DNA of 64,000 nucleotides from Paramacrobiotus metropolitanus (taxonomy: Eukaryota > Tardigrada > Eutardigrada > Parachela > Macrobiotidae), in contig NW_026570224.1 in the NCBI RefSeq assembly GCF_019649055.1, positions 3,286,001 through 3,350,000 on the forward strand, given 5' to 3'. Under the pieces are notes generated by a model. The model saw only the letters and a program-made list of their open reading frames with translations. It made no database searches and was not told where the DNA came from. Position 1 is the first letter of the stretch. Every line of letters begins with the position of its first letter. The translations under genes were made by a program, and so were the position numbers. Positions 2,660-53,630 of this stretch are shown one piece after another.

Positions 2660-4297
2660 ATGAGGACTTTTCTGATCGTTTTCGCCATCGGCTTGGCCGT
2701 CACGGCCGCAGATGATGTAAAAGATCCGGTCCTGAATGTTGTGGAAGTGGCCCTTCGCATGGGACAGTACAGTTATCTCATGGCTTTGGAGGAGACTAAT
2801 AGCCTAGATTTGCTGTTGAACACGAGTACGTTATGAATTTGTGAGCCAGAATGAGAAAACCGAGAAAAGCTTTCTACTGCTGTGTGCTGAAGTGCAACTA
2901 AAATTTTGTCTATAGAGGATATCACGGTTTTCATGCCCACTAACGACGCATTCCGCAACGTAAGCGAAGATACCAGGAATTTCTGGCGTGCTCATCCGAT
3001 TACTACAAACAGCTTATGCGGTAAGGGAGCTGCGCAAAATCATATCCATTCTGAGCACACTGTACATAAGTTTACTTCTAATGGTTTACGAGTACCACTC
3101 AATTAACACAATCAAATATTGTTTGTTATTTGTTTTCTTATTAGTATCGCAGACTATCGCTAATTTTATTTCTTATATTTATATGCTTGGTCTCATCACA
3201 GTGTATCCCTGTCCATATTTCTACTTCAGATACCACATTGTTGGCGAGCGAAGGGATAAAAAAGACCTGATTGACGAAGCTAACTACGATACCTTGGCTG
3301 ATAAGAAGCGTGCTCGTTACATCGATTACAATGGATTCAGTAAAAATGTAACGAAACATTTTTTGATAAGGAGTTCAAAAGAACGTTTTCGCCAGAAAAC
3401 AGCCTATTCTTACGGACAGGAATAGCCGGTTAATTGTTTTTCAGATTCAACTGTACAATGATGCGCAGATCCAGTCCTTCAACTACGAGGCGTCAAACGG
3501 TGTCATTCATTTGCTGGATAACGTGGTCGGACACATCCAGAACGACAACATGCTCAGCACGTTCAAGGGCGTCCGGAATTATCCAAAATTCTCAATGCAG
3601 TGAAAATCACTAACTTGACAACCGTTTTGAATGGTACGCACTACGCTTAGTAAATTTAAATTTTATCTACACTTTGCATACTACTGGTAGCAAATACAGA
3701 AACAGATGTAATAATTATGTTTTTCTTATCGCTGACTTATTGCAAATTTTTAGGCTCGGGCCCGTACACTTTTGCGGCTCCCACCGATCAAGCAATTGGG
3801 AAACTGCCAGCTGGAGCATGGGACAAATTATTGAACGATACAACCCAGCTGAAAGGTTTGTAATCTTACCGGAGGTATGGAGCGATATGGAGTAAAATTG
3901 TTTTTTTCGCTTTGCAGAAATTCTGAACTTCCACATTGCCAGTGCTGGAACATGGATGACTCGTGGTTTGACTGACAAATTGAGCATTGCTACTCTGAAC
4001 AAGAATGCCAATTGGACAATCAGCATCATGGACAGTACGTGATGAATGATTAATTTTGTTAAATTGCCGGAGATTTTTAATGGGGTTTTAAAAATCACGA
4101 GATTTTTAATGGGCTTTTAAAAATCACAGTTTAATTAAAATCTTATCTTTTTAACAGACCAGCCGATCACGATATGGAATGATAAGGCCACACCAACGAG
4201 CCGTGCTCAACTGGTTACCTCGGATCTGTCAGCACTGAATGGAGTTGTGCATACGATCGATACCGTGCTTTTCCTCCCTGGCCAAGAAGAGTTGTAA
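2660..4297 (+). CDS. Secreted two-domain fasciclin (FAS1) protein, copy A, with two frame breaks
   Basis: Fasciclin-family extracellular adhesion protein. Exons: 2660-2825, 2916-3020, 3230-3347, 3445-3633, 3754-3855, 3918-4034, 4158-4297. Residues 1-17 form a signal peptide (MRTFLIVFAIGLAVTAA). Two FAS1 domains are visible: H1-type motif ITVFMPTNDAF, YH motif RYHIVG, H2-type motif GVIHLLDNVV; then YTFAAPTDQAI and GVVHTIDTVLF at the end. Intron phases (1,2,0,1,1,1) match copy B exactly, so this is a tandem duplicate. Oddity: relative to copy B one base is missing near 2999 (HP followed by a shifted frame) and one near 3567, and the unshifted frame meets TGA at 3601-3603. The downstream exons stay conserved, so these may be assembly errors; otherwise the copy is a recent pseudogene. 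About 312 codons would be expected if intact. Confidence 0.82.
4070..4127. repeat. Tandem 29-nt duplication in FAS1-A intron
   Basis: Two adjacent 29-nt copies (4070-4098 and 4099-4127), each beginning GAGATTTTTAATGGG and ending TTTTAAAAATCAC, with one mismatch. Each unit is itself partly palindromic (GATTTTTAA...TTAAAAATC). It lies in the last intron of copy A. Confidence 0.75.
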
Positions 4298-5926: not shown

Positions 5927-8346
5927 ATGGGAAAATCTGCAGTCTTTTTCGTTGCACTCTTATTGGGTTTCGGCGGTATTAAAGCAGCCGATGTTGTCAA
6001 GCGGGATATATGCTTGTCAGATCCTGTCGGAAATGTTGTACAAGTAGCTCTACAGATGGGGCAGTACCTTTTTTTAGGCGCCATGGAAGAAACCAAAAGC
6101 CTACATTTACTGGAGAAGACAGGTACGGTCGTCCTATAGCTAGTTTTATTAGTTCGCTCGCTCCCGGCCTTCATAGTTTCACGAATAAGGGATGGTTAAT
6201 CCGAAACGATAAAGCTATTGTACAATTCTGTTAATAATAATATGTTGTAATAGCTTTGCGATCGGTATCTTTATAATATGGTGGTGCAAATTAGAATACT
6301 TTCGTCTTTCGTGTTAGCATACTTTACTTTTAATGCGCCGCGGTCTTAAACCTCCCGGCATGCGAAAATACCGCAAAGTACCAATTTTTTACATGTACAG
6401 TAAGTTGATAATGCATTAATGATATTATGATATTAATTAATGCGTGATGTATTTTTGGATAGGTAATATCACGGTTTTTTTGCCGACCAACGAGGCATTT
6501 CGAAATGTTAGCCAAGAAACCCGAGATTTTTGGAAAAAACATCCCGGAGCCTACAAGCAGCTAATGAGGTTTGTGGGATTTGTGCTCAGTAGTAGGAATG
6601 TGGCAGCCGTTAAAATCAGTACGGATTTGGCGGCAGATAATTTCTCACAAACCATGAGCATTGTAAAACCACATACCCAATTGTAGCAGTATGTAACTAA
6701 ATCAGCTCTACACTTCAGGTACCACATTGTCAAAGAATTGCGACATAAAGCTGACCTCGTCGATGAAGCTACATACGTAACTATGACCAACAAGAGTTTT
6801 TCGGGTCGTTATGTTGACTACAATGGATTCAGTAAAAATGTGTGTACGAAGCTTTAAATTTGTAAACACGAGTAAAAACAAGCCTGACAATATCAAAATC
6901 TGCAACGCTTGTTTATGGTATTAAAAAGGCTGGCGTCGCCTAGATCCTTGCATGCTCAAGGTTTTTAAGCTCTGTAGTAAATTGTAGTAAGCAATGGTTT
7001 TGCTGTACATCTATACGACATCAGCTGACGCTTTTCGGTATGTATGCTGTTTCAACTTTCAACCCCTTTGCTCTTTTGCATGCCGGGTTCCTCGTTTTTT
7101 GCAAAACAACAGTGTTTGAGTTCACAATACTGGTGCAGGTAGGGTGACACCTAGCTGATTCTATTTGCAGATACAGCTGTATAACGATGCACCGATCAAC
7201 TCCTTCGATTACGAAGCATCGAATGGTGTCATTCATCTTTTGGATAGCGTGGTTGGACGCATGGCAAAGGATACCATATTCGGCATCGTCAAAAAACGCA
7301 AAGATTTAACCAAAATACTCAACGCGATACAAATAGCAAATCTGACTTCGATTCTAAACGGTACTTGTATGCATACCAGTAGCTTGAAATAAAATTTAGT
7401 TTATAGTTTATAACAGTAGTGGCCGACCCGCGGTTACTTTTTTAATAAAGCACATAAAATGATAAGTGCACCAACTAATATTAATTTTCTCATTTGAGCC
7501 TACAAATTAAAGTATGAGTAGTTGAGTACTGCACTCGTATTACATGAAAGTGGTTGATGGGCTTGCTCTGTGAATTTTTGTGTACGAGCTAGGTTTGCGT
7601 TCACATGCACCGCTCTGCTGAAATAAGTTACATTACGAGTACTATAAAAGCGGGAAATAGCAGCGATCTTTTTTTCAGGTTCGCAGCCCTACACATTCGC
7701 TGCGCCAACGGATAAAGCAATCGACAAGCTTCCGTCTGGGACGTGGGATAAATTGCTGCATAATCCTGATCAGCTCAGAGGTTAATGCTGTTTGTAGTAG
7801 CATTAGCGGTAAACATATAATGTATTGTAATCGTAGCATAATCGTGTCTTCGTATGTGACCCTGAACAGAAATTCGAACACTGTATCTGTGCACATTTAA
7901 TTTACCCTGTTTATAACGCTTTAATTACTGATGTCTGGTGACCTTTGTGAATTGTGCAGACGTCTTGAATTACCATGTGGCAAGTGCGGGAACATGGATG
8001 ACTCGTGGTCTCATAGATAACCTCAAAATTGCAACTTTAAACAAGAAGGCTGACTGGACAATCCATATGGACAACTATCAGAAACATGGGAATGAAAAAA
8101 AGTCTGGGTCGCCGGGTAAATATAGAAGAGCATTGACTTAATTTGATTTAAGCAGTGTAATTTGGCGTACAAGAACTTCTATATACAATACACAGAATGT
8201 TATTACCTTTTTTAGGTAGCTTTATCAAAATCGACCAAGCCAAAATGATTGCTGTGGATTTATCAGCGACTAACGGAGTAGTGCATACCATCAGCGCCGT
8301 GCTTTTTCCTCCTTCTCGTAGACGTCTGGGCCGTCGGCATAACTGA
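5927..8346 (+). CDS. Secreted two-domain fasciclin (FAS1) protein, copy B
   Basis: Extracellular FAS1-domain protein of about 333 aa, intact. Exons: 5927-6122, 6463-6568, 6719-6839, 7171-7360, 7679-7780, 7960-8115, 8216-8346; all phases agree. The start ATG (GACCATGG context) opens a signal peptide, MGKSAVFFVALLLGFGGIKAA. Domain 1 carries ITVFLPTNEAFRNVS, RYHIVKELRHKADLVDEA and GVIHLLDSVVGR; domain 2 carries YTFAAPTDKAIDKLP, VLNYHVASAGTWMTRGL and GVVHTISAVLFPP, ending in a basic tail (RRRLGRRHN). No transmembrane segment or obvious GPI signal is visible, so the protein is probably secreted and may act in matrix or cuticle adhesion, as other FAS1 proteins do (inference). Exon 6 is longer than in copy A by an insert rich in Lys, Gly and Ser. 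It lies 1.6 kb downstream of copy A on the same strand. Confidence 0.88.
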
Positions 8347-9622: not shown

Positions 9623-12053
9623 ATGGACACTTTCGGCAACACATACCGCTTACAGGGCTGGAACGGCATTGATCTGGATTTAGAGCCCAGCAATCAGGGA
9701 TTAACGATCCCGCACGCGTAGCCAGCTACACCGACCACAACACCATTATTAATGTGGACCTCAACAAACGATCTCAGCGACCGCGGCAGACACGGTTGCT
9801 CTACAAAGATGGAGCATATACCCTGATTGGCAAAAACATCCCCAATATCACGCGGCGTTTCATGTCGGATTTCTGGAATACGATGCTGGACATGAGCTGG
9901 ATGACGATTCTGTGCTTTTTTCTCTGCAGCAGTCTGGCGTTGTGGTTGACGTTTGCCGCCGTGTTCTGGATCATTTCTTACGCACATGGAGATTTTGACA
10001 CGCGAAATTTCACTAATGACACTTGGATACCGTGCATTTATTTTGAGAATATGAGTAATACGACGACGCTGACCAATACGTTCACGCACAGCTTCCTGTT
10101 CGCAGTGGAGACCCTGCGTACGATAGGATATGGTGAGTTGCACTGGTCAGTTTTCACATATCTATATTTACTGCAGACACGCTGTAACAGTTACACTAGA
10201 TAGGCATAGTGCAAATAGTTATAAGTCGTACTCGTCCGAGTTTTGCTGACTGGTCAGCAGTGCGCCTTAATGCACAGATGTGAGATTAATAAAATAAAAT
10301 TAAATATATATGATTTTAATACATAAAAATACAGGATTTTACTTGTACACATTTTGTTACAAAAGTAATATTCCAGCCATTTCCAGGTACACCGCGCTAT
10401 CCAACGGATGAATGCGCAGCGACATTGTTTTTCCTGTGTTTTGGATTAATTGTCAGTTGCCTCTTGGAGAGCGTCCTGGTGGGGCTCCTCCTGGCCAAAA
10501 CGCATGTCCCGCAAAAGCGCACACAAACCCTCCTATTCAGCCAGTGTGCGACAATCTGCACCCGCAATGACCAAATGTGTCTTCTCTTCCGCGTGGGAAA
10601 CGTCCGCACCAGTCTGCTGCTGCGTGTGGCACTCAAGGCGTATTTGGTGAGAGATACTGGAGAGTAAACACAGTTGTCAAACTATCTATATTTGTGTAAG
10701 TTTGACCCACATGTAATGTGCAAATTTGTTTGCAGGTTTATGCCAAACGCACCGACGAGGGTACTATACGCAATAGAGTCCAAAGTTTCTGTTATGCGCT
10801 GTCGTGATTGATTTCCCTGGAACTAAAAGCGTGTGTTTACAGGGGAAGAAATGCCTTCCATCAGCATGAAATTGATCTGCAAATCGACTGCAATGGCGAC
10901 AATGTCTATCTGGGATGGCCAATTACCGCCTGCCATGTGATCGACGCCAGCAGTCCTTTTTATCATGTGAGCAAAAAGAATCTGAGTCGAGCCGCGTTCG
11001 AAATCCTGGTCATCCTGGAAGGCATTGTTGAATCAACAGGTACGATTGTAGTGTTATTCCCGTATCTTTATGTACTCGTACACAAGAGTGCTTTCGGTTA
11101 TATTTATATTTATATGCGTTTATATACTGCGCCGACAGTTCTGCAAAGTTTTTGACCTAACAACTTAGATGATTATCTATTTTAATAGTATTTTGTTTAA
11201 ATAAGTATTTGAGTTGTTAAATTTATTGTTATTAATATTCCCGTAGCTTTTTCGTATAAGAATGGCTTAGGTGACCTTGTATGTCTGCACTCGGCGCTGA
11301 CATTAGTGAATACGATACTGAAGAGTTCTTTCCATTAAATACGTATTTATCTGACTTAATTCATTAAATCTGTGGTAAAAAACTGTGTGTGCTACACAAA
11401 ATTAATGGAATAAAGTTTTCGTAGGATCGTCCGTTCAAGCACGCACATCGTACATTCCGGACGAAATCCTTTGGGGTCATCGCTTCCGTAGCGTCTACAC
11501 CCATGCGGATCGCAAACAAACCCAGATTTTTGACTTTACCCACTTCGACAGTACAGAACCACAAGCGGACATGAAAGATCTTTCTGCTTACGAACTGAAC
11601 GAACGGGCCATCTTGACCAGTCCGCTGAATTCCACTCCGGCACCGACTCCGGTTATCTTAATGTCGGTGGCGGAAGAAGAGCAATCGGGTGACTATACCG
11701 ACAGTGTGGTCGGCGCAATGCCGAAGGAAGCGATGTTATCACCGTCTCTTGCGAAGGCTCTGGATCTCCCGTATGAGGTCATTCAGAATCGAAGCCGGGC
11801 AGGAACGCGGCGTGGCAGTACGCAAGTGCAGTCGCGGAGGGTATCGCGGGTGGAGACTTACGGTCAAGATGGATTACGCTTGCCGCATCCGTGCAGTAAT
11901 TCACCGATTGCTTTCGGGAATCCCGAACCGATTTCATTGCCGTTGCGGAGGATGTCGACATCTGCGGGCCGGAGTGATGCTAAGATGCGGCATGTGGCCA
12001 GTTGTGATGATTTTTCCGCGATAGGGAGGTTGAGGAAAATATCTTCTCCGTAA
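9623..12053 (+). CDS. Inward-rectifier K+ channel (Kir family), with two apparent frame breaks
   Basis: Two-transmembrane potassium channel of the plasma membrane. Exons: 9623-10132, 10387-10646, 10736-10760, 10843-11039, 11425-12053; about 540 codons. M1 is near MTILCFFLCSSLALWLTFAA; the pore has VETLRTIGYG with the filter TIGYG; M2 is LIVSCLLESVLVGLLLAKT; the cytoplasmic domain shows QTLLFSQCATICTRNDQ, FRVGNVRTS, ACHVIDASSPFYHVS, EILVILEGIVESTG and ARTSYIPDEILWGHRF. After the filter the residues are TP rather than the usual aromatic-Arg. The pore-lining rectification position in M2 aligns with Glu. Oddity: the ATG at 9623 runs into TAG at 9719-9721 unless one base is missing near the GGG at 9697; exon 4 needs one more base near 10855. 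The long Ser/Arg-rich C-terminal tail lacks an obvious PDZ ligand. An upstream first exon could replace the 9623 start. Confidence 0.85.
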
Positions 12054-17900: not shown

Positions 17901-20013
17901 GTTGTTTATAGCTATAATATGTAGGAGTTTGTCGTATCGTTTTGTTTGAATTTTACTGAACATGGCAGTAAAATATTCGTTAAATCGTTATTGCAGTTTT
18001 AACGTACACCTGTATCTCCCGGTTTACCCAAGCTTTTAATAATAATACAAGTAATAGAGATAATATTGCCAGTTGTGAATTAATAGTTCTATCGTTTATA
18101 CCGCCTTTTGCAGGTGCGCTTGCGTACAACAATAATGCTACATTGGTATAATGGAATCATAAACCGGTTAACGTTATCGTGATATATAGGAAAGTAAAGT
18201 AGACGGTAGCTGTATGCGCTTAATACGAGTATAATCGTTTTTTAGAAAATCGGAATTCTACCTTGAGGTTATACTGGAGAAATCGATTATTCCTTGGTAC
18301 TTCATTCATCAGCTTTCTCGTTAAAAGTCAATGGGATGTCTGGGAGAAATTCCCTAGCGGCTAGCTTTTACTGCTACCTGCCGTAGACAGCTTGAGTGGC
18401 CGTTACTAGTAATATTTTGAAATCGGGTTTGAAGTAGATCAAGAGGGGCATAAATTGTTTGCCCTGAGAAGATATGCGTTTAAAAAATATGGAACTATTC
18501 TGTAGTACATATGGAGAATATTAACTAGAAGGTTACCCGTAGCGTACAAGATTGTAAACGTGTAAAACATGCAGCCGTACCATAACTACAATATTAGGCG
18601 TACCGCGTGACTATAAGATAGCTCAAAACTTCTACCATATATAATTTCCAGCAAGAAAAATAATTATATTGATGTATTTTTACATGATATGACTGCGTGT
18701 TTTCAATGGCGTACACCCGTTTATTGCTTCATGCTGTGCTCAAAAGCACTTATACACTTTTCCACGGAATTAAAGTATTACACAAGTTGCATGAACCGAT
18801 AATGAATCGATTTTTGCGGGGGCTGGAAGCAGCGCAGTAAGGACCGAAATGGTATTTTTTTGTGCGACTGTGCCCATAATAAAACAGAACATCACGCTAA
18901 ATCAATCAGGTTGGTTGGTTGTACATCAATAATACATACAGCGCTTCCTTCGACATAAAAAGCAATCCCTATTTGCATATAATGTTGCGACTATAAAGGC
19001 TTTTTGCCTTTGAAAGATGTCTGCTCGTTTCATCGGTTACGTGACACTGTCGTGCATATTATCTTGCCGCAGTCTGCGCAGTTAACAATACAAAACGCTA
19101 CTGTATAATGCATATGATGCGAAGTGTGAACTGTATATCAATATGCAAACAGATTTTATTATTATGTCGTGAAGTACACAGTATTTTTAGTGATAAAGTA
19201 CAATTTGTTTCTCGGGTTAAGTTAACCTGTACGCAGAAACTACTTTAATAAATAGTTAAACGATATGTTAATTTCAAAAATTCTGTGAGGATTACGTGTA
19301 CTCGGTACCATTACTAAAGTGTTAAACATTTCTTGGTCATGTTGCATTGTTGTCAAAGTCAAATGATTTTATTGCAGCCAATTAGGAACGCGCCGGTTGG
19401 TGAAAAGTATGTCCGCTGTCCTTGCCACTGTCTATTGATCTGTAAGGATAGTTCCGAGCGCATCGCTTGCCCACGTCAAAACTGGTAAATCTCCCTCTTA
19501 AATGTAATGCGTCCCCCATAAGGCAAATATTTAACTTCCGGCTCAAACATTTTCATGTCTTGGCTCAATCGGTGCCTGTATGGTTCACGTATGTTTCACA
19601 GTAAGCGCATCATCACCATCACGGCCGCCGTCGATGGTACCGGTCCCCTGTCCCAGTCTTTCGCCGCATCCAACAACACTACACCGGGCACTTGTCATGT
19701 AGTGTGTGTTCACTGTGGTCAAGATTTCCTCTTCAATATCCTACACAAATCACTGGCCAAATGTCCCCATTGTAATAAGATATCGGCGGTAGGGAATGTC
19801 TACCGTCGCCGGCAGTTACGTGTATACTCCGTGGTGGCCTTCCTGTTCCTGCTGGTAACCGTCCTTGTGATAGTGGGCACGTACTTTCTTGTCGCCGAAT
19901 CCGGTGGTATCGTGGCGCTCTATGTTGGACTCGTAGCCATAACCGTCCTGGCTGCAGTGCGCGTTGTATACTTCTTCCGGATGAAAGTCAGTCAAGTGCA
20001 GGGCACCTTTTGA
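14959..20013 (+). CDS. PIP4P: TMEM55/PIP4P-type phosphatidylinositol-4,5-bisphosphate 4-phosphatase
   Basis: Late-endosome/lysosome membrane protein of the TMEM55 family, which removes the 4-phosphate of PI(4,5)P2. Exons: 14959-15142, 15368-15563, 16434-16509, 19378-19484, 19602-20013; 324 aa with consistent phases. The N-terminus has the acidic ERAPLLPP motif typical of the family. Next come the Cys-rich zinc-binding core TCRVC...[30 protein letters not shown] and the CX5R catalytic-type motif CKDSSER, then [13 protein letters not shown] and CPHC. Two C-terminal transmembrane helices follow ([20 protein letters not shown] and [20 protein letters not shown]). The exon 1/exon 2 junction is the least certain part, because the acceptor is AAG rather than CAG. 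The third intron is unusually long for this window (2.9 kb). An AATAAA lies at 20211. Confidence 0.88.
16510..19377. other. Long PIP4P intron
   Basis: 2.9-kb AT-rich intron between the exons ending CNEAT and starting PIRNAP. On the minus strand 16874-17293 is a 139-codon open frame, containing [19 protein letters not shown] and a Cys-rich C-terminal half. I recognise no family in it and it has no supporting splice or start context, so it is probably chance. No repeats or RNA gene were seen. Confidence 0.35.
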
Positions 20014-20600: not shown

Positions 20601-23600
20601 TCATTCAACGTTGCTCTCATCTTTTGCTGTGGACACCAGCCAGTACGTGGAAAGGTTACCTTTCCCCTGCAATTCGCAATTATTATGACATACGAGATAA
20701 TTTACGTTGATAAGTGCAAGGGAAACCGGATAAAGTTTCCCGCGAGAAACGAATTTTGCCACTAGCACGGCACAAGTATGTGGTCGGCGAAATGACTGTA
20801 ATTATGAGATACCTTAATTAAAATGGTTCCTCGAGGTACAAATTGGAAGGCCTTGGGGAAAAATTGCTGAGCGGCATCCATAAAATCTTTACTAACATGG
20901 ATCTTTCGAGCTAGCATAACAAAGAAATACCGAATTACGCGGATGCTGCACAACGGGTTCACATCGTACATCATTGCTCTTATGTTGTTAATGACAGTGT
21001 ACGATCATCGTATTAGAAGAGATTCTTACCACATCCAAAGGAAGTCATCCGGGAAGCAGTATTGATTGTATCGCCAAACCTGTGCCATAATTGCTTGTTT
21101 AGTCTACTGCATATATAAGAAGATGATGCTGATAAAACTAAAAGGTCACTCATCATATTCCTGTCACAGTTACTGCGTGTTTGCTGAAAACTTACAAACA
21201 GTAACGGAGCATTCTGGTTCCCACAACGCTGGCCGCACAAGGCCCTGTGAAAGCAACAGTCGCATAATATTTTTTGGTTAAAAGTAAATTTAGAATTTTT
21301 TAGTAAAGCTAACCTGTATTAAGGCCAACTTTTAACTGCAACCTGCAGCTCATATCACGCAGTCGCATAGGCTGCTCGGTACGCTGCATGAGGTGAACGG
21401 ACGTTTCACTGACTTCACGAATATGCCTTTTACCATTTCGGACAGGTATTCCACTAGCAATCTGTGGGTATCAAAAGCCACATAATTATCACCAGTCTGC
21501 AACAGTGTGCCATCATTCGAAACAAGAACACGTTGGTTAGTACCATGTACGAGTCTCCTATAGTTTCCACTTTGTACACGTCATAGCTGCTAAGAACTTC
21601 ATCCAGAATGCGAAACATGTGATGGAGAAAATTCACAACCATGAGTGGTTCGATCCGTGCAACAATTGTAACAAAGTCAGCAACCGCCGTGAAACCCACA
21701 GTCACTTGATCGAAGTCTTCTGGTGGCACGGAAAGTCCCAACCTCAGTCTCTCCACAACTGGTCTATAAGGCATTTCTTCCTTCACTATTTTGGTTTTAG
21801 CTCTAATTTAATTATCAATGCATTAAGTAAAGTACGTTTATTGTATGCTAGATTCTAACGCATTTTACTTGGGCAAAATTTCGGCAAGGAGTTTATCAGT
21901 AGCCTTTTTTTCCTCGTCCAAGGTTGCTGTTTTTAATTTGACGGAATTCTCCAGTTCCCTTGTAAAGTATTCCAGTTTATCCATAACATCTTCCAACAAA
22001 GATCCATCTTGCTTGAAATTCGGCATGCGCTCGCTGAGGTACCGCCGAATGGCCTTGAAATCCGGCCGCTCCCGAGGATCCTCGGCCCAGCATTCCGGCA
22101 GTAATTTGATAAACGGCATTTCTTCTGGCTCAACCGGCTGAATGTCCGGTCGATGATGGGCATCGGAAGTAACCGGCGTTTTTTTAATTAGGCTTATTAT
22201 TTCTACACAAACAAAATTGCAAAACTAAGACACCTGAAATATACAACTGTGTTAAGGCATAATAAAAGCGCAATAATTATAGTCGCATTATTTCCCCTGT
22301 TTTAAGTTGTCCTAATATATGTGACCATATTTGGTACGTACAATAGCTTTTATTGTAATAATTATTTATAATTTTGACCGCATAAAAATATTTTTTCCAC
22401 AATTTGAATTGAGGGAAAAAGACTTTCTTAAACTATTTAGCAGTGCATGTTAGCGTGACCTTTTATTTTGGCTAATAGTTTTGCTCCATTCCTTCCCTCA
22501 AAATTTATCCAAAATGGCTCGCAGGTGAACAACACTTGATGCATAACAATGGCAAAGGAATATACATCGCCTTTCACGGTTTCAGGTTCGGCTGACTCCC
22601 CCCGAAGTAATTCCGGGGAAATGTACAGTTTCCGCGCTTCAGTCTGATGCGGAAGCACCGAAGCCATCTCGGAAACTTGTTCACGAATCTTCCGCAATCC
22701 GAAATCACTCAGTCGTACCGTCAGCCGCCTATCAATTAAACAGTTGGACGCCGTGAGCCGTCCGTGCACACGAATCGATGAATGATGAATGTATAGCATT
22801 CCCTGCAAGAGAAGGCCACTAAGGTCAACTTTTGAATAATGTAGAGAATGCGTAGTGTTTGTGTGTGGTTTACGCATGACCTACTATAAAATTGAAGAAT
22901 TATCATACATAGTTTAATTATGCCTCCAAGTTCAGATGTAAGAAGATGCTCGCTAGTAATTAGGTAAAACATCTCGAATGCGGTATTGGTGTTAACCTCA
23001 AGATTCAACAATACTGTAAACAATTAAGTAAGCTCTATATTGTGTACAGTGTGGCACAGCCAAGTTGATACTGCTTGCTCGAATATTTTCCATTTTCATA
23101 ATATTTTAATGGTTTTGTATGTGCTCTGTATGTGCATGCACTTGTACCGCTGTTATCCCGTTGATAAGAAACAGCTTGATATCTTTTAGCAACGACTGAA
23201 AAGTGTCCTTTCGTAGCAGGTCTTGGAAAGAATGTTCGGGAGCAAATTCCGAGATAATGCGAACATCACTCGTCCCAATGCAGACTCCAAAGAATATGGC
23301 AATATTATCATGCCTCATTTTCTTTCTCTGCAATAGTATGAGATTATCCTTTACAGCATGAGTTCGAGTATTTCACCAGTTCATTTGGTTGTGGAGGTCC
23401 TATCCAGCCCAAACTGCTTAATATTTTCATATCCCATTTCGACTGTACGCTTACGTGATAAGTTATTTCCAGCAGTTCATCATCAACAAGTAACTTTCGT
23501 TGGATTTTAAGTTTTTTGCACCACACCAACTGGTCATGGAATCTGACAAGTCCGTTATTCCCGCGTCCAGATTGTTCCGTCTAGCACAGTAATATTATTA

Positions 23601-26600
23601 AATTCCATCGATGAGCTTCGCATTTTAATAGATCAACGCTGACCATGTGCATTAGACGCGTAATAGTTTGCCGCAGATGGCGGTGTTTATCGGAGATTGT
23701 GGAGGCCGGTGTGATTTCCTCTGGTAAAATAATCCAGCTGCTGTATTCTTTGCGCAATTTCCTCCTGGAAATGCAACGATTTGCGGACATTTTATAGTTT
23801 TTGTGGAGAACTGTGGAAATATGCTAAATAAATTTACCTTTGGTGCACGCGATAAATGACAAATGCAGCTACGTAAATGATGGCACAAGGAATGAGTATG
23901 GAGGGAAGCAGTTCCGTCAACAGAGCGTCTAAGCAGATACAATAACTTAATTGGTGCGTTTACAGTACTGCAGACAGTCTTTTCACATTTCTACTAACGA
24001 GTAAGTACAAATACCTATCCACTTTGCTACAATCATGATAATTAATTGCTCGTTCTTTCATACACGAATAAGAATTAATTTTGATAACAGATAACATCAA
24101 CAAACTGCGCCAGCCCCGATGTACAGATAAGGTATAAGGCTAATAAATAATTGTTGTACCCAAGATATTGTAACCAACCAAATAACCAATTTCCTCACTT
24201 TTTCGTAAACATTCAGCATCGTCGCCCACGAATCCGCATGGCGGACGATCGCTTGGAGGATTGGCATGACGAATCCACTTAAACCGGCTAGATGCGATCA
24301 GTTCCGAATCATATGAATCAAAAGTCCAGAGCTCCTAATTTAAGATCCAATTACGTTATAGCGTGAACTACTTACTCTATTACACCTTTGATTTGCATCT
24401 TATATAATCTTTGTATATCAAAAAATTACGTTAATCCTGCAGTACAGGATTGGTTTAAAAAAAAACTGATTTACGTGCATCCTTACAGTTCCAAAATACG
24501 TACTTGGAATGACTTTGTCTGGGCGCTGACTCCAAAAACAGAATATGCAGCGTCACGATCCCCGTTTTCATCAATAATGAACGGCGTTCCCATGACGGAG
24601 CTGAAATTCCGCCTGTACATGCTTCTTGTCAACTCAATCCCGTCGCTAAGATTATATCCCAATGAAATGGTTTCGTTCACCATCTGAAGCATACATTACG
24701 CAAAACTTGGCGTTAAAATAATGATAGAATTTTAAGAATTTTCCTTGTCTGAAATTTTTCAGCTTTACCTCGGCAGCTGCTGCAAATGCGGTATGCGTGC
24801 AAACCGCAGTAAGAACTGACTGAAAAAGAAAGATTTTCCAGCGAAAAACTAGCAGTACGGTATTATTGTACCGTAACGTCCTATTAAAAAAAATAACTAA
24901 ACTCTATTACTAGTAAATAAACAGAGCATATGTAACTTATATAGGGCATGAGCGCCCAGTACCAGTTTTTTTACATTAGACTAAAACGCTGCGCTAAATA
25001 AATGAGAATTCGAGCTTACTTCTTCGGTGATATCGCTGGAATTTGACTGAGAGCGAATGTATGACGTAAAATTATTTAACCGTTGGTTGTCCGTGGGAAG
25101 AGGGGATAGGGATATTATGAAAAGCGATTGCAATATCTAAAATCGGCCAAAACAATTGCTGTGCAATATCGGAAGCGATCATCATGTAGTCCGAACTATT
25201 ACGGCGTACCACATCCAAAGAATTTTGAGCAGCTTCGGACAGAAAGTGTTCTGTATTCCACAATGAGCTGTATACAATATTGGTGACATACACCTAAAGA
25301 GAGGACAAAATCTTCGTTATATTAATCCGGCTGCTGAGAAACACATTGACATCAGTAATACCCGCATAGACACTTAGGAATTTCGGAAGTTCTCGACAAT
25401 TGTACTGTACATAAAGTGCGGCAGTTTTTCTGTAAGAAGTCCTATTTGCTTACATAGTCTTTTCCCATCATTCCTAAATTAACGGCAGTTTTCTGAAAAT
25501 CAAACAAATCATATTTAAATTTTTCTTGTGTTCGTCGAAACCAAAACTCGAAAATAGTAGCAAATTTTCGCTAAATGTTAGTAATGTAAAAATTAATTAC
25601 AATTAATTCTCTTTAGCATACCAACATATCCAGCAGAAATTTGATTTCCACCATAAGGACAATCACTGCAAACGGCAAAAAGTTGTCGACTGGCAATACA
25701 TACTTGTAAATATATAGAGTTATTTAAGTACTCATAAATGTATTGTAAAACCCGTTATTAATTTATTAACTACAGACACAGTAGCTGATGCTAATTATAC
25801 TGTTACTTATTGCTTCAGAATATGTAGCTGCTTTACCTCTACTCCGGGCTCGAGCATATTCCAGAGCCTGTACTCGTTGTTCAGGTAAGGAGAGATCCAA
25901 AGACAACAAATACGTAGCGCGTGGGGTATACATTTCCGGATCACCATATATAAGATCTTTTGCTGTTTCAGCACACATTTCTTTTAATGATGCAGGCACA
26001 TAGTGGATATCACAGATGATGGTTATAGTGCGCCACTTATACACCGCAAAAAGTTCACGAGTGCACCGACTGAACGCTTCGATCTGCACCGGCAGCACGC
26101 GAACCAGAGTCGGAAAGCGAACCTTATTTTGCAACAGACTCCCCCTTCCGGCACTAGTGACAGAAAAAATCATTTTGGTCCTTTGGATCAAATATTTATA
26201 GACATTTTCAAGCCTTTTCTTACCTTGTAATGACAGGAATGTTTAACTCTGCATACATAAATCGACATAAGAAAAATGCAGTTTCTGATAAACTATAGCC
26301 TGACAACAGTTTCTTGATATAATAATAATTTCATTTCGTTAACAGTCCACGACAATTATCGTAAAAATTTCAATTATTAAAATGATGTTTTTATACAGGA
26401 GTTTCTATATCAGGATGACATCATGACGTAATCAAAACTGAGCCGTCCCCACCCGCGCGAAATGTCCACGATTCTGTCGATTGCTAACACAGCGAATTTT
26501 TGCAAGTATCAACATGAAACCGGTGTCAATTTGTGGAATTACTCCCTAATCCCTATCGATTCTCCATCAGGATGGTTTCCGTATCGAATTTCTTTTTTAT

Positions 26601-27352
26601 TTGTTTACCTCTGGCGAAATCGGATTCCAGCACCATCGCTCCTGTGCAACCTGCAAACCGGCCCACCCTTAATTTTACAAACTATATGCTGTAGAATTCA
26701 CAATGTGTAGTAGAAACTGCAAGGACTCATCCAGTCGAAAACCTGTATACAAATATTCTTATGGGATCAGTGGCATCCATTGCGGAACGCGAAATACTCG
26801 GTTATGTTTGACAGGATGTGAGAGGATAAGAACTGTGTGTTATACGTTAATGATTTTTCAATATGTATTAGTGTGACTTATTATACGAGCATATGCACTC
26901 AGTTATACATCGATTTTGCCAAATAGAAAACTGAGTGTTAATTAAGTGAATAGTTAAGTGAAGAGAAAAATGTGAGTATTTCAGGGGCATACCGGAATAT
27001 GCTTGTATTGTACTACCGTACCTGTGGGGATAAACACAGTGAAGCTGGCTTTTTCCAAATTTTTTGCGTAATACTCCGCAAAAATAGAAGGCGCTAAATC
27101 TTCAAAGTAGTTGCACGGTGTGACACTCCAGTTAACTATCGAATGCAGTATTATGTTCATGTTAGAATATTTTTCCTGTGATTCTTGAAGAGCAAGATTG
27201 ACGGCGGCCATCACAATTTTGGCATCATAAGGAACAATCACTAGGAAAATCACAGTTGGTTTGGTATTTGGCTTATCTTCGCCACCAATTATCATCACAC
27301 CAAAAACAAATATCCATGTACAAAGAATCTGATAAAATTTGGGAAATCGCAT
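20601..27352 (-). CDS. Receptor-type guanylyl cyclase, 22 exons, catalytic metal Asp replaced by Ala
   Basis: Single-pass receptor of the natriuretic-peptide-receptor type, about 1095 aa. Exons in transcript order: 27352-27022, 26650-26609, 26248-26224, 26153-25837, 25665-25622, 25492-25454, 25293-25081, 24819-24769, 24683-24504, 24334-24160, 23928-23838, 23764-23644, 23580-23455, 23327-23142, 22802-22460, 22202-21869, 21802-21544, 21461-21314, 21244-21196, 21079-21030, 20910-20813, 20666-20601; every phase agrees. Signal peptide 1-23; ANF-type ligand domain to about 440 (RFPTLVRVLPVQ, IDENGDRDAAYSVF); transmembrane 474-502; kinase-homology domain with NIAIFFGVC, VHGRLTASNC, LSDFGL and ECWAEDPRERPD but no HRD; coiled linker ending EILPK; cyclase domain from about 900. 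Guanine-specifying Glu952 and Cys1024, metal Asp956, and Asn1031/Arg1035 are present. The first metal Asp (F-S-D-I-V-G-F in active enzymes) is Ala912 (codon 21687-21685). The protein is probably inactive alone and may work as a heterodimer partner (inference). Confidence 0.93.
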
Positions 27353-28672
27353 ACTGCATCTGGAATATGGCTAATACACAACCGCACGGTGACCTTTATT
27401 ACAGTGAGCAAAGCTTGTTAGCATAACGGAGAAGTCCAGAACGTTTTGCAAATGGCAAACATGGCCGCTTCATATCAGAACAGCGAATCTCATCCAATTA
27501 TACGGTGACCATGATTCCAAGCCATAATATAATATTGTCCATATCAAAATGGAAAAGTAGGACTGCCTATTCAGTTGCTGATATTTCCGATTTTTTTCCG
27601 TTCCTCCAGAGTGTTCCACGCACGGATGCAACACTGAAGCAGCCGTAATGATTTGAAGAGCGTTGTGTTGACTTAGAAACCAGAGCTTAGAAGAAAGTCA
27701 CTTACACTGCAAATTGACTGCATCCTGTAGCCCCGCTTGAAGGAACATATCGGTTACTCCCAACCGGAAACCATAAATAATGCGAATATGATGTGCCTTA
27801 ATGCGTGTGTCACTGTTGTGCACCGCTTCCTCTCAATAGCTAATTATCTTCCGTGGTTGGCTACATTTGCCGACTTGGAATACATAATTATTCGGATACC
27901 CGAAGTCCGCGTCCTTAAATACTAAGAACGGCATTATTTTGCGCGCTTTCGGACAGTAAATCCGCGCCGGTACAACACGTTAGAGGTTCTTCTCGAACAT
28001 ATATGCTGTACATACAGCTGTGAAACTGACGTTGATGTTGTTATTGCCAGTGTTAGGGCTAGTACTAAACTAACAATCTTACTGCACACAATTATTTCAA
28101 GAGTTCAAATATAACCTTATCCATTTCTAAGCGTTCCCAGCGTACGAAAACGTACGCTGTTGAAAGCAGTTTCGAGTTTTCACACGATGACACGGGTATA
28201 TATCCGAAGACCGAAACCAGAATTTCAAATTACCCGTGAAGTGAAGAGTTCCTTAATTTTTTTTGTATTTAACCTTTGTAATGTAACTCTGCTTTTAAAT
28301 ACTGCTTTTCAGACAAGTAATAAAGCGTAAAGCTAGAGGATTTGTAGTGCTAAATATAAAATGCATATGTATTTACGATTACATGTAGCTATTACAAAGT
28401 ACTTACTATAGTGTGAGATACTACGTATAGCAAGTTCTTGCTATTACAAAATACAAAGGAAGTGCGCCTGCGCGCTCGACACCTACCTCCACTTCCATCG
28501 ACATCGCCACCATTACCAGTACCATTAATTTCTGACTGATGGTATTGGTAGGCCAGAGCGTTCTCGCTACATTTTTTCGTTAGGATTTCGCAAGTTCTTG
28601 GTGAGGTTTTTGTTGTTCTTCATCGGAACGCAACATTTTCCTGCTTTTATCGACACATATAACGCTTTCAAA
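27353..28672. promoter_or_regulatory. Divergent intergenic region, cyclase / SmD1
   Basis: 1.3 kb between the start codons of two divergent genes, so it must hold both promoters. I cannot point to a TATA box or initiator with confidence. An open stretch on the minus strand at about 27700-27940 resembles coding sequence weakly, but it lacks a consistent splice partner. Confidence 0.4.
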
Positions 28673-49135: not shown

Positions 49136-51404
49136 TCATTTATGCCAGAAAGGAAACAAGTTCATATACTGGCGATACCTCTCAAAATCTTGTGAATGCA
49201 TATTGGGCAGGAAACCGGGTGCTGCTGTAAAGGGAAGGTTACGCTGCTGCATTGTAGCCGCCATACTACGCGCCCAAGCCGATTGCAGGGCATTAACAGG
49301 CAGGGGTGAAATGGATTTAATCGGGGATGTCGGTGCAGTAATATTTGTGTTCTTACTACTGTCCGGCGATGATGATGTGCTTTTTGTATCCCCAATCAGC
49401 TTATCAATGGTAAATGCCGACGATTTGGATGTTGTAGCCGGCGAACTGGGCAGCTTAATGGCCGTCGGCTGCAAAGGGCTGTGGTGCAGCATAGTATGGG
49501 GTACAACCGGCATCGGAGGCGCGGCAGGTATGGGCAGTGTGAAGGGCGCGCGAGGATTAGGTAGAAAGGGCATAGCGGCCGGATGGATGCAGGGGTACGG
49601 CGCACCGTGATGGCCCAGTAAACGAGCAGTGTAGGGATCGCCTAGGAAGACGGTGTTCTGGTCCCGATACGGCTCCGGTTGCGGGCGTTTAAAACGCTTC
49701 CGGCGACGTAAAAAGCTGCCGTTATCGAACATGTCTTCACTTTGTGGATCCAATGTCCAGTAATTGCCCTTGCCCGGGTTGCCAGGCTCGCGGGGAATTT
49801 TCACGAAGCAGTCGTTGAGGGAAAGGTTATGCCGTATGCTGTTCTGCAATTACGAAATTAACTGTAAATCATTGACAAAAACATATAACACGCTGCAGCT
49901 TTATTACTTCAGTCGCTCACTGTAAAACTGCTGTAGGAAAGTAAAAGATGTTAAACATCTAATTAATCAACAAAAGACCGTATTCCGTACTACCTCATGA
50001 TCATTGTAAAAATTAAATTTATATGCTCCTAACTGGCTTTAAAGTATACATACAGAGTACTCGCATACTGTTACGCTGTGTACTTCGTCAATTTATTATT
50101 GCGCCGCAGCTGTCAGAAATTAATTACAGAACCGAAGGCAATAAACCATTGCCCATCGGTACATGAACGTGCAATCAACAGCTCATTGTCCATTCGATGT
50201 TTTGAGTCGTACAATGCATATATATATATAAAACGAACATTTTTAATTTTAACTGAGCGCGCTCATGAATATTGTCATAATTATACCAGACGGAAACGGT
50301 AAAATGTTCCAATCGGCTCCACTGCGACAATCATGCTGTATCTTTAGTCTTTAGGATATCTACGATTTCAGAACTACTACAGTAGCCATTACTTGATCGT
50401 AGAATAAACTAGCCATGCACCGAAAAAGTTTATTACAACGTTCGTGTCATAACTACCTAACATTCAGGTGAAATGACCAAGTACAGTATTAGTACCAGTT
50501 AAGTAGCGGCAGTATGGTGCAGCGGCAGCCCACAAAACGTAAATCAAAATATACGCGTAGTTATCCTATAATTATTGCCGAGTGTGAAGCTATATGTACA
50601 GTGATTATCTGTATATAATGCTAAACACTAAGCCTTCTATAATACTAGTATGATGCATAAATAAAATTTAAAAATAAAATAGCTTCACGATTAATTCATT
50701 AAAATGGAATGATGCGCACTAATCAGATACAGCGTTTTCCTTTAAATGTAAAATCTAAAAAAGATTTGGTTTGTCTAGACTTGTTCTGTTGTCATTTGTA
50801 AAGAAAGCGCAATCAATGTGCGAAATGCCAGATACATCTTTGAGCAATACCGCCGATATATGATGTATTGTACAGTGTTAAAAGTTGCTTTTAGCCTGTG
50901 CTGCAATGATTACAAACGCTTTTACGAATTGATTCGTTGTTTTAGGCATTCATTCCGCTACCAGCATAAGCTCACCTGCCAAACTGGAAACTTCTCGCGA
51001 TAGTACGGGAATCGATTCATGATAAACTCGCAGATGCCCGACAGCGTCAATTTTTTGTCAGGTGCATTAAGTATAGCCATTGTGATAAGGGCAATATAAC
51101 TGTAAGCTGGTTTTTGATGGACATTCTTCTTGCCAAAAGTCGACTTTCCCTCAGACGAAGGATCATTGTCGTCTGGATTATTGCTGGATTTAATCACATT
51201 ATCATCGGGATCCATGTCAAGGTCAATACTTTCATCATGATCGGAAACATTGTCGTCCTGGTCATATTCATGAGATGCAGTCAAACACGCGCCCGCCGAT
51301 AAGGTCGGCTTGCTATGGGAGTCGTCTGAGCTGGCAATGGACAACGGGCTGCCGTTCATGTTTTGTCGTACGTGCGCTTCAGCCATGTCAACGTTGAGCA
51401 ACAT
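49136..51404 (-). CDS. FoxD: Forkhead transcription factor FoxD
   Basis: Nuclear DNA-binding developmental regulator, 378 aa from two exons: 51404-50976 and 49843-49136 (phase 0 junction inside the forkhead). Forkhead domain at about residues 98-190: [54 protein letters not shown] and the FoxD-type [20 protein letters not shown], followed by RRRKRFKR. One family-typical Pro is Ala (KPAY for KPPY). The N-terminus is acidic ([18 protein letters not shown]). The Pro/Ala-rich C-terminus has an Eh1-like Groucho-binding motif, FTIDKLIGD (287-295), as in repressor FoxD proteins. The start is the first ATG; a non-ATG open extension precedes it. The intron splits the recognition-helix region at WQ/NSIRHN. 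FoxD is clear; the orthologue number is not. Confidence 0.94.
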
Positions 51405-53630
51405 AGTATCCACACCGTGCAACGTTGAGGAGAAAACTCACAATCAGAAAGTGTCGTGCGCTAATCAACAGACGGGCAAAAATTGGGAAAACGTTGTTGT
51501 ATTTACAGTACTGCACGCCTTATTTAAATAGTCCATACTTGGCAGTTTTCACGAGGACTGTAGCACCAATCCAGTAAACAGAATCACCTTCTGCGAACAC
51601 AATTGCCGACAAATCCTAATAGATTAAAGTTTGTGTATCAAAGCGATCCTATTCTTGTGTATATAAGCTTCAAGCGCTCGCGCGTTTAGATGTATATGCC
51701 GTATATATATGTGGTGCATCCGGCTCCGCCTATGATTGGTGCGTTGATTGGGGAGTTTGTTATGCTAACTGCTCAGTTGCGATGACAGTAGGCGGATAAA
51801 GTTGAGTGTCTGAACCAGTCGCAGAGCGTGGTGTGGTGGATTACTTATGTAAAGCGGCGCGCGCTCACTTACGTTTTTCATGCCATGTTTTCCTATAGCA
51901 GACAAACAGTTTACAGTAAATCGAACAGAAATCTGTGCATTGCAAAACTTGCCGGAGATTAATACCGGTAAAATCAATGTTAATTAACTGATTGTCAAAA
52001 TTTCGATTACGTTACAATTAGAGTTTGGGTACGAGGGTCGTCATGAAGTAGGTAATAAAGTGTGGTGCACTGGGAGTATAATCTTATCACAAGGACAATT
52101 TATGATGTCCGCGAAACTGTTTTCATAGTCTGATTTCCCGACAATGCGCAAAATATTGTCTTAGCCATAAATCACGGTGTACTAACAAAGATAACGTATT
52201 GTATACTTGGTTTCAAGTAGGCATATCGCACGATATGGCGCTTGCAAAGTTAAAAGACACGTCAGCTGCTTGGATCAAGCTATTTTCGTCGTAAAAACTC
52301 ATAATTCAATACTTATGCCACAAACTAAAGTAAAGATTACGCATTTTATGGTTTGGCTAATAATGGGTACCTTAGCGGTACAGTTTTCTGTCGATATTGT
52401 TCCGTGACGGCTGTCCTTTCGGTTTAATATTTAAGTCTCTTTCTAATCAGCTTCATAGAGAGGCCCAAACAATAATGTACAATGCAACTTATTTACACTT
52501 GATAAGATTTTCGACTGAACGGAACAGATTTACATAAGATCGGTTTCATACAATAATAATTATAACGTTTAATATTTTACTGTTTCTGTAAAAAAATGTC
52601 GTTAATCGTAATATTGTACTATAATTTTACAGCCCAGTATTGCATGTATTGTACAGGGTTATTTTACGTTTCTTAATAATATATGCTAAACAATAGGCTA
52701 GAGTTTTTATATTTATCGTAATCATATTAAAGTCTGCATTCTACAAAATTAATACAAGTGCTGATATTGTATACAGATACACTATGCAGTAAATCTCAGT
52801 GCTGACCGTGAATAGTTTGTGTTAAGCTTTACTGATTTATTGTGAACGAAAAACTTCCTACATAGTGTGTACGCATCTTGAGCAGTTATCGGTTCTATAC
52901 ATTAAATTTAAAAATTGTATTGTGTAAACTGCAGAATGCTTTGAGCCATGGGGCCCGATGTTCATGGACATATCCACGAGTCCCCGACCACGTAGTTAGG
53001 CCACATTTACAGTTAGTTTGTTAAATAATATCTTGTATGTAATTGATGTGTCCAGTAGCGAAACATGAATGCAGCAGTCTATTGTATATGAATTAATAGG
53101 TATTTATTAACTTCTCTGGACATGAGCGCACGTCTGATTAATGATATTTTATTATGCACTGCTTCAATCCTCTGGCGTAAATTCTTGTGTATATGAAACT
53201 GCTTAAGAAAATATTTAAAACTATGAAGTATGAGCTACACTGCTGTGCATGTACAGTATCAATGATTCAATGTGGCATCATTTTGAGCTTTTATTAACTG
53301 CAGGCAGTTAGTGTGTGAAGGAATCTCGCTGATAAGTCGGTAAGCTTATCTATAAGGATATCAGTATCTGGAAGAAGCATGACTCCCTACCCCAGTCATT
53401 AGCATCATAACTTATGAAGATACGAATTGCACGAATGAGAACCATTTTCACAAGATTTCACGGCAATTAAAGCCCCGGAATCTGTCAACATGATTTCGAT
53501 TCCCTGTACGTATAAGCGATAGAATCACACATGCTTATATATATTAAAGAAGCATAATAAATTTAGCAGGAAACACCAACAAAGTAATGAGCAAATGTGC
53601 CGCAAGTACTGCATACTCCAAGCCACTGAC

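What the first reader, a model, noticed from the sequence alone, without database searches (positions are those of the whole stretch)
21544..21802. Receptor guanylyl cyclase lacking the first catalytic metal-binding Asp
In active class III cyclases the motif F-S-D-I-V-G-F supplies one of the two metal-coordinating Asp residues. Here the same position reads F-T-A-V-A-D-F, with Ala912 encoded by GCG at 21687-21685, flanked by well-conserved VPPEDFDQVTV and DVYKVETIGD. The second Asp (956), guanine-specifying Glu952 and Cys1024, and Asn1031/Arg1035 are all intact, and the 22-exon frame is unbroken, so this is not decay. It points to a selected pseudo-cyclase receptor, or to a subunit active only with a partner that supplies the missing Asp. 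Asp915, three residues on, is a possible but geometrically doubtful substitute.
Basis: partly seen in the sequence, partly recalled or inferred. Interest (0 to 1): 0.75.

Follow-up and report, generated by a model that had tools for sequence, protein, structure and literature searches.

The report
Half-site receptor cyclase, partner needed
This receptor enzyme gene has lost one of the two acids that hold the metal needed to make the signal cGMP but has kept the parts that hold the fuel molecule, and since dozens of sister genes show the same one-sided loss while five others show the opposite loss, it probably works as one half of a two-part receptor.

Summary
Confirmed: a minus-strand receptor guanylyl cyclase gene (about 20601-27353) has Ala (GCG, 21687-21685) where the first metal-binding Asp belongs. 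Second Asp, guanine-specifying Glu and Cys, catalytic Asn and Arg are intact, and the window holds no second exon of this kind.

It is not a lone oddity. The genome holds at least 177 cyclase places. Of 159 aligned exons, 54 lack this Asp; all 54 keep the Glu. The 33 of those 54 whose later exons were read all keep Asn and Arg. A third metal-side residue, an Arg, is kept in 24 of 24 chains counted as Asp-intact but lost in 20 of 33 Asp-broken ones; here it is Lys. Five other chains have both Asp but lost Asn and Arg.

Erosion is thus one-sided and complementary, as in adenylyl cyclase C1/C2 and soluble cyclase alpha/beta. Best reading: a C2/beta-like, substrate-holding subunit active only with an Asp-bearing partner; nematode ODR-1/DAF-11 is the known precedent. 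Pairing itself is inferred. A silent pseudo-cyclase remains possible.

The parts
20601..27353 (-). receptor guanylyl cyclase gene (approximate span, ATG 27353 to stop 20603-20601)
   Evidence: open exons and Pfam hits
24486..27353 (-). extracellular ligand-binding region (several exons, not rebuilt splice by splice)
   Evidence: weak ANF_receptor hits 21.2 and 15.2 bits, both under the curated 25.4
23838..23929 (-). probable transmembrane segment LLPSILIPCAIIYVAAFVIYRVHQR
   Evidence: read; no TM predictor was run
22492..22802 (-). kinase homology domain, main exon
   Evidence: PK_Tyr_Ser-Thr 54.2 bits over the cut-off 23.1 for the open stretch 22440-22880
21869..22187 (-). end of kinase homology domain and dimerisation linker, ending AEILPK (5' end approximate)
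   Evidence: HNOBA 17.3 bits, under the cut-off 23.4
21544..21763 (-). cyclase exon with the missing Asp
21685..21687 (-). Ala codon GCG at the first metal-Asp position
21676..21678 (-).
   Evidence: not conserved in related genes
21565..21567 (-). guanine-specifying Glu codon
   Evidence: present in 54 of 54 Asp-less exons
21553..21555 (-). second metal Asp codon, intact
21314..21461 (-). next cyclase exon IASGIPVRNG...LQLKVGLNT; Lys at 21332-21330 where the metal-side Arg is expected
21196..21244 (-). exon GPCAASVVGTRMLRYC with guanine-specifying Cys 21200-21198
21030..21079 (-). exon LFGDTINTASRMTSFGC with catalytic Asn 21063-21061 and Arg 21051-21049
20813..20910 (-). exon ARKIHVSKDF...GTILIK
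20601..20666 (-). last exon GKGNLSTYWLVSTAKDESNVE and stop

Best explanation
The gene encodes the substrate-holding (C2-like, sGC-beta-like) half of a heterodimeric receptor guanylyl cyclase. Shown from sequence: it has lost metal-side residues (first Asp to Ala; the Arg of the RIGIHTG strand to Lys) and kept the partner-side residues (Glu and Cys that read guanine, Asn and Arg of the transition state). Inferred: it pairs through its linker with a receptor chain that carries both Asp and the Arg; one working active site forms at the interface and makes cGMP when ligand binds. Likely partners are the five 'alpha-like' chains in this genome that have both Asp but lost Asn and Arg, or an ordinary complete receptor. 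A homodimer would be dead or nearly so.
For: (1) All 54 Asp-less exons (of 159 aligned) keep the Glu; its column shares first place of 74 in conservation with a last column that is mostly splice-donor letters, while the first-Asp column ranks 55th and holds 12 different letters. (2) 33 of the 54 Asp-less chains, window included, had their later exons read: all 33 keep Asn and Arg; so do 10 of 10 chains classed as having the first Asp but not the second (one, L083, is probably an intron-split codon). (3) Metal-side Arg kept in 24 of 24 chains counted as Asp-intact (in two of them, L111 and L113, the second Asp is unread), lost in 20 of 33 Asp-broken ones (Fisher 5e-7, ignoring relatedness). (4) Complementary chains: C6:2054310, C6:2061898, C6:2071227, C98:162049, C98:170205 have both Asp but Asn to Q/Q/Q/V/A and Arg to Lys in all five; they form one clade, 96/96. 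(5) Aligned to adenylyl cyclase 5, this chain resembles C2 (VMFASIANF, FQMKIGLN), not C1 (LFADIEGF, MRVGIHSG), at the eroded sites (VGFTAVADF, LQLKVGLN). (6) Purifying selection in Asp-less pairs, median dN/dS 0.14. (7) sGC splits residues this way and its catalytic-domain homodimers are inactive (PMC3591389 passages); C. elegans rGCs lacking such residues are hypothesised to be heterodimers, with chimera data for ODR-1 plus DAF-11 (PMC8045692 and PMC5225109 passages).
Against: No expression, binding or activity data. The correlation in (3) is not independent on the tree: metal-site loss needs 4 changes, Arg loss 5, and one pair on starred branches was available. Asn/Arg loss is a single event. 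Eleven of 28 Asp-less chains still have the metal-side Arg and two of 28 have Cys to Ser. The second Asp, useless in a C2-like half, is kept in 47 of 54, though sGC beta keeps it too (recalled). Glu, Asn and Arg sit in motifs that might be conserved for folding. The precedent is not closed: PMC8045692 says formal proof of native ODR-1/DAF-11 pairing is awaited and that there are clues to homodimers, and some beta-type soluble cyclases are reported active as homodimers (PMC5225109; PMC1435932; passages).
Confidence: 0.62

Rival explanations
1. Selected pseudo-cyclase: the receptor signals through its kinase-homology domain or other partners, or acts as a decoy or dominant negative, and never makes cGMP.
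For: Metal-binding residues are lost repeatedly in the family, at least 4 changes on the tree of 57 rows; close Asp-less pairs are under purifying selection.
Against: Glu is kept in 54 of 54 Asp-less exons, Asn and Arg in the 33 of these chains that were read; a non-catalytic scaffold need not keep residues whose known role is GTP binding. Complementary losses exist in another clade.
Confidence: 0.25
2. Active homodimer with a replaced metal ligand: the Asp three residues on, or the second Asp alone, carries the metals.
For: Asp is commoner at that column in Asp-less exons (9 of 54) than in Asp-bearing ones (1 of 105).
Against: The column is Asn in the nearest genes L064 and L066 and Gly in 29 of 54; the C2 half of adenylyl cyclase 5 has Asn at the same place. 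A metal-side Arg is lost as well.
Confidence: 0.07
3. Early decay or assembly error: a gene on its way out.
For: The family is large and partly tandem, which favours decay; one copy elsewhere (C65:182067, L209) has a broken-looking later exon.
Against: Open cyclase exons with GT-AG splice sites, PF00211 at 173 bits, the same loss shared by a supported clade (99/95), dN/dS median 0.14 in Asp-less pairs.
Confidence: 0.03

Closest known systems
C. elegans ODR-1/DAF-11 receptor guanylyl cyclases
   Same: Single-pass receptor cyclases that lack catalytic residues and are taken to complement each other; chimeras rescued only as a pair (PMC8045692, passages).
   Different: Two genes in a family of 27 there (PMC5225109); here 54 Asp-less exons of 159 aligned, plus a separate alpha-like clade. 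Residue-by-residue comparison with ODR-1/DAF-11 was not done.
Soluble guanylyl cyclase alpha1/beta1
   Same: Asp pair and R574 come from alpha, R552 and K593 from beta; homodimers of the catalytic domains inactive (PMC3591389, passages). The window gene is eroded like beta, the C6/C98 clade like alpha.
   Different: Membrane receptor architecture with a kinase homology domain; nearest solved relatives are ANP receptor 1 and GC-C, not sGC.
Mammalian adenylyl cyclase C1/C2 halves
   Same: The eroded sites match C2 of adenylyl cyclase 5 (Ala against Ser for Asp, Asp against Asn for Gly, Lys for Arg, Asn for His).
   Different: Separate chains, guanine-type Glu and Cys; the rest of the domain is receptor-cyclase-like.
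ANP receptor 1 (GC-A) and GC-C
   Same: Closest solved homologues, 175.8 and 159.7 bits.
   Different: They have both Asp; mammalian receptor cyclases are described as homodimers (PMC5225109).

Membership tests
Receptor guanylyl cyclase (rGC) | class III cyclase catalytic domain | tested here: met
   PF00211 173 bits, cut-off 21.9
Receptor guanylyl cyclase (rGC) | kinase homology domain upstream | tested here: met
   PK_Tyr_Ser-Thr 54.2 bits, cut-off 23.1
Receptor guanylyl cyclase (rGC) | ANF-type extracellular domain | tested here: inconclusive
   two exons at 21.2 and 15.2 bits, cut-off 25.4; two further ectodomain stretches gave no hit
Receptor guanylyl cyclase (rGC) | single transmembrane segment | tested here: inconclusive
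   hydrophobic stretch seen by eye at 23838-23929; no predictor run
Receptor guanylyl cyclase (rGC) | coiled-coil linker before the cyclase | tested here: inconclusive
   HNOBA 17.3 bits, under 23.4
Homodimer-competent cyclase | both metal-binding Asp in one chain | tested here: not met
   first is Ala
C2/sGC-beta-like half-site subunit (works like) | metal-side residues eroded | tested here: met
   Asp to Ala; RIGIHTG Arg to Lys
C2/sGC-beta-like half-site subunit (works like) | Glu, Cys, Asn, Arg of the substrate side kept | tested here: met
C2/sGC-beta-like half-site subunit (works like) | dimerises with an Asp-bearing chain and is active only then | not testable with these tools
   candidate partners exist
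Soluble guanylyl cyclase | heme (H-NOX) domain instead of receptor domains | not tested
   a kinase homology domain was found instead
Pseudo-cyclase | substrate-binding residues also free to drift | tested here: not met
   33 of 33 Asp-less chains read keep Asn and Arg, 54 of 54 keep Glu

The most novel reading that the evidence does not exclude
This animal runs a combinatorial receptor system: many divergent 'half-site' receptor cyclases, each with its own ectodomain and no complete metal site, share a small set of alpha-like co-receptors that carry the metals but cannot finish catalysis alone, much as insect odorant receptors share Orco (analogy recalled). The split active site enforces pairing and multiplies receptor types. 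Receptor cyclases would then have re-evolved the C1/C2 division of labour, with erosion at the same positions as in adenylyl cyclase.
Probability: 0.3. Interest if true: 0.82.

Novelty: new variant of a known kind. Interest (0 to 1): 0.62.

Why it matters
Heterodimeric receptor cyclases are known mainly from one worm pair, and the pairing rules are guessed from missing residues. Here one genome offers dozens of chains eroded on one side and a clade eroded on the other, which makes the complementation rule testable by simple co-expression, and shows how enzymes may split a symmetric active site into two specialised halves. It would also mean that counting 'dead' cyclases as inactive receptors is wrong for whole gene families.

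Tried and rejected
Rejected: alternative exon with the Asp (one good profile hit in the window). Asp three residues on as a ligand. Simple decay (by way of relatives). A nematode source: the nematode-typical family TTR-52 (PF01060; label recalled) gave 0 matches, but nothing rang in the control genomes either, so this is weak. The mitochondrial COX1 search found nothing, so the species is not established; that it is an animal is inferred from gene content.

Led nowhere: a tree with two rows shifted by one column was redone; a dN/dS script timed out and was rewritten; the 2006 C. elegans rGC survey is not held. Independent-pair testing had too few pairs. No structure was predicted.

Rows dropped or not seen: the five late-start loci without a first-Asp row (C54 and four on C71; their metal-side Arg is kept), L120 (later exon broken or mis-read) and L001, L102 (later exons not found within 2.1 kb). 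In one search L061 (13 bits, not a real alignment). The 15 late-start loci and two C98 loci were not among the 160 exons; the C98 pair came in through. The 23 further places were not fetched. Six Asp-bearing rows (L031, L083, L084, L111-L113) probably have an intron near the second Asp codon, so its state is unread. Of the 100 pattern matches listed (236 counted; its backward control counted 89) I passed 57, those on contig stretches with a fetched exon. Three listed matches not linked to any fetched exon lack the Arg (C19:604406, C20:324653, C21:1037730) and were not followed.

Full report
What is there. On the minus strand between about 27353 and 20601 lies a receptor guanylyl cyclase gene: weak ANF-type ligand-binding matches (under the curated cut-off), a hydrophobic segment near 23838-23929, a kinase homology domain (54.2 bits), a linker ending AEILPK, and a cyclase domain (PF00211, 173 bits). 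Its nearest solved relatives are ANP receptor 1 (175.8 bits) and GC-C (159.7 bits). Glu, second Asp, Cys, Asn and Arg are intact. The window contains no second exon of this type. The ectodomain exons were not rebuilt, so the 22-exon claim is unchecked.

Setting. PF00211 gives 200 exon matches, 150 of them listed; together with a search by the window's own domain the listed ones fall into 177 separate places, 162 of which cover the first-Asp region. Not all are receptors: L110 looks like an adenylyl cyclase and L061 is a poor match. A later search adds 23 places, so the total is about 200; the tool calls its counts lower bounds, and a few places are near-identical copies (for example L001/L002, L096/L120) that may be uncollapsed haplotypes. 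By comparison C. elegans has 27, mammals 7 and Drosophila 6 receptor cyclases (PMC5225109, passages).

The first Asp across the family. I fetched 160 of the 162 exons and aligned them to a profile. Leaving out L061, 105 of 159 have the first Asp and 54 do not; the 54 carry Ser 16, Ala 11, Tyr 7, His 5, Gly 5, Glu 2, Leu 2, Ile 2 and one each of Cys, Thr, Arg, Lys. Fifteen more keep the first Asp but have lost the second; in six others an intron probably hides the second. The window gene sits in a supported set of four Asp-less genes with L025, L064 and L066 (96; 99/95), so its loss is shared and old, not a private accident.

One-sided conservation. In those 54 Asp-less exons the guanine-specifying Glu is present in 54 of 54. 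Its column ties for first of 74 in conservation (the other is the last column, mostly splice-donor letters); the first-Asp column ranks 55th. I then read later exons for 40 chosen paralogues (27 Asp-less, 13 others). All 27 Asp-less ones and the window keep Asn and Arg; of the 13 others, 10 keep both, L108 lost both, and in L001 and L102 the exons were not found. With places added from a pattern search (57 of 100 listed matches passed on) and, 33 of 33 Asp-less chains keep both, and so do 10 of 10 classed as lacking only the second Asp (one, L083, doubtful). Cys is kept in 26 of 28 Asp-less chains and is Ser in 2.

A third metal-side residue. In sGC the alpha chain supplies, besides D486 and D530, R574 for the phosphates, while beta supplies R552 and K593 (PMC3591389, passages). 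The family's R in RIGIHTG aligns with the C1 Arg of adenylyl cyclase 5; that this is the R574 position is my reading from recalled sequences. It is Arg in 24 of 24 chains counted as Asp-intact (two of them, L111 and L113, with the second Asp unread; two pairs nearly identical) and lost in 20 of 33 Asp-broken chains (Lys, Gln, Leu, Ile, Val): 17 of 28 without the first Asp and 3 of 5 without the second. The window has Lys. Fisher's p is 5e-7 but rows are related: on the tree of 57 rows metal-site loss needs 4 changes and Arg loss 5, and too few independent pairs exist for a test.

Complementary chains. Five genes, C6:2054310, 2061898 and 2071227 (within 17 kb) and C98:162049 and 170205, have both Asp, the Glu, the Cys and the metal-side Arg, but Asn is Gln, Gln, Gln, Val, Ala and Arg is Lys in all five. 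They are one clade (96/96). A nearby row, C6:1393997, has Asn to Leu with Arg kept. This is the mirror image of the window gene. The alpha-like first-Asp exons other than the query are 88-91% identical to it, whereas the window's exon finds nothing above 48% over the same stretch; this compares one query each, and close pairs exist among Asp-less genes too (L122/L123).

Convergence on C2. Against adenylyl cyclase 5 the window's VGFTAVADF and LQLKVGLN align with C2's VMFASIANF and FQMKIGLN, while C1 reads LFADIEGF and MRVGIHSG. The changed positions are the same ones, although overall the domain is closest to receptor cyclases. This may also explain the Asp three residues on: C2 has Asn there, and related genes alternate Asp and Asn.

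Selection. For close pairs (dN under 0.35) the median dN/dS over the exon is 0.14 in 8 Asp-less pairs and 0.11 in 46 Asp-bearing pairs. The pairs share members and are not independent. The window gene's own relatives are too distant for a direct estimate.

Mechanism. The simplest account is that one active site at the dimer interface takes its metals from an Asp-bearing chain and its guanine, ribose and phosphate contacts from the window chain. Shown: sequence-level complementarity, and selection in relatives. Inferred: pairing, activity, ligand. Pseudo-cyclase function cannot be excluded but does not explain why only the metal side erodes.

Known and new. That receptor cyclases lacking residues may be obligate heterodimers is a published idea with experimental support for ODR-1/DAF-11, though formal proof of native pairing is said to be awaited (PMC8045692 and PMC5225109, passages; they cite Morton 2004, which I did not read). 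What I did not find in ten searches (open-licence papers only, mostly seen as listings) is a family of this size with opposite-side erosion in separate clades.

Noticed in passing
L027, L028, L159 (C118, C91): A subfamily with FTSFDGF has the guanine-specifying Cys changed to Ser and FGD to VGD (later exons read for L028 and L159); base preference might differ.
   Followed up: partly
L001/L002/L008/L009/L015/L090/L091, L005-L007, L032/L092, L143, L082, L098: Fifteen exons that keep the first metal Asp but lost the second (for example METIGSSYM), again with Asn and Arg kept where read.
   Followed up: partly
G000:C6:1393997 (L221): Asp-intact chain with catalytic Asn changed to Leu but Arg kept; near the alpha-like clade on the tree.
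   Followed up: no
G000:C19:604406, C20:324653, C21:1037730: Pattern matches that lack the catalytic Arg (Cys, Lys, Ile) and were not linked to a fetched exon; chance matches or further alpha-like chains.
   Followed up: no
G000:C65:182067 (L209) and C474:6548 (L210): Nearly identical cyclase genes, one with a broken-looking FGDTVN exon; perhaps alleles, one damaged.
   Followed up: no
G000:C16:1376074-1430961: Run of 8 pattern matches of the GDT-V/I-NMASRM kind in 55 kb, a cluster of cyclase genes hardly sampled here.
   Followed up: no
window 2891-3103 and 6441-6683, +: Two Fasciclin-domain stretches about 3.5 kb apart, possibly tandem duplicates.
   Followed up: no
window 60529-61554, +: Long open stretch matching rhodopsin-type GPCR (7tm_1 92.3 bits) and Srw (85.1 bits).
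   Followed up: no
window 57046-57939, +: 298-codon open frame with a chromodomain; possibly retroelement-derived, not checked.
   Followed up: no
window 9673-10200 +; 19522-20010 +; 50961-51437 -; 446-667 +: Inward rectifier K channel, Tmemb_55A, forkhead and TPR matches.
   Followed up: no
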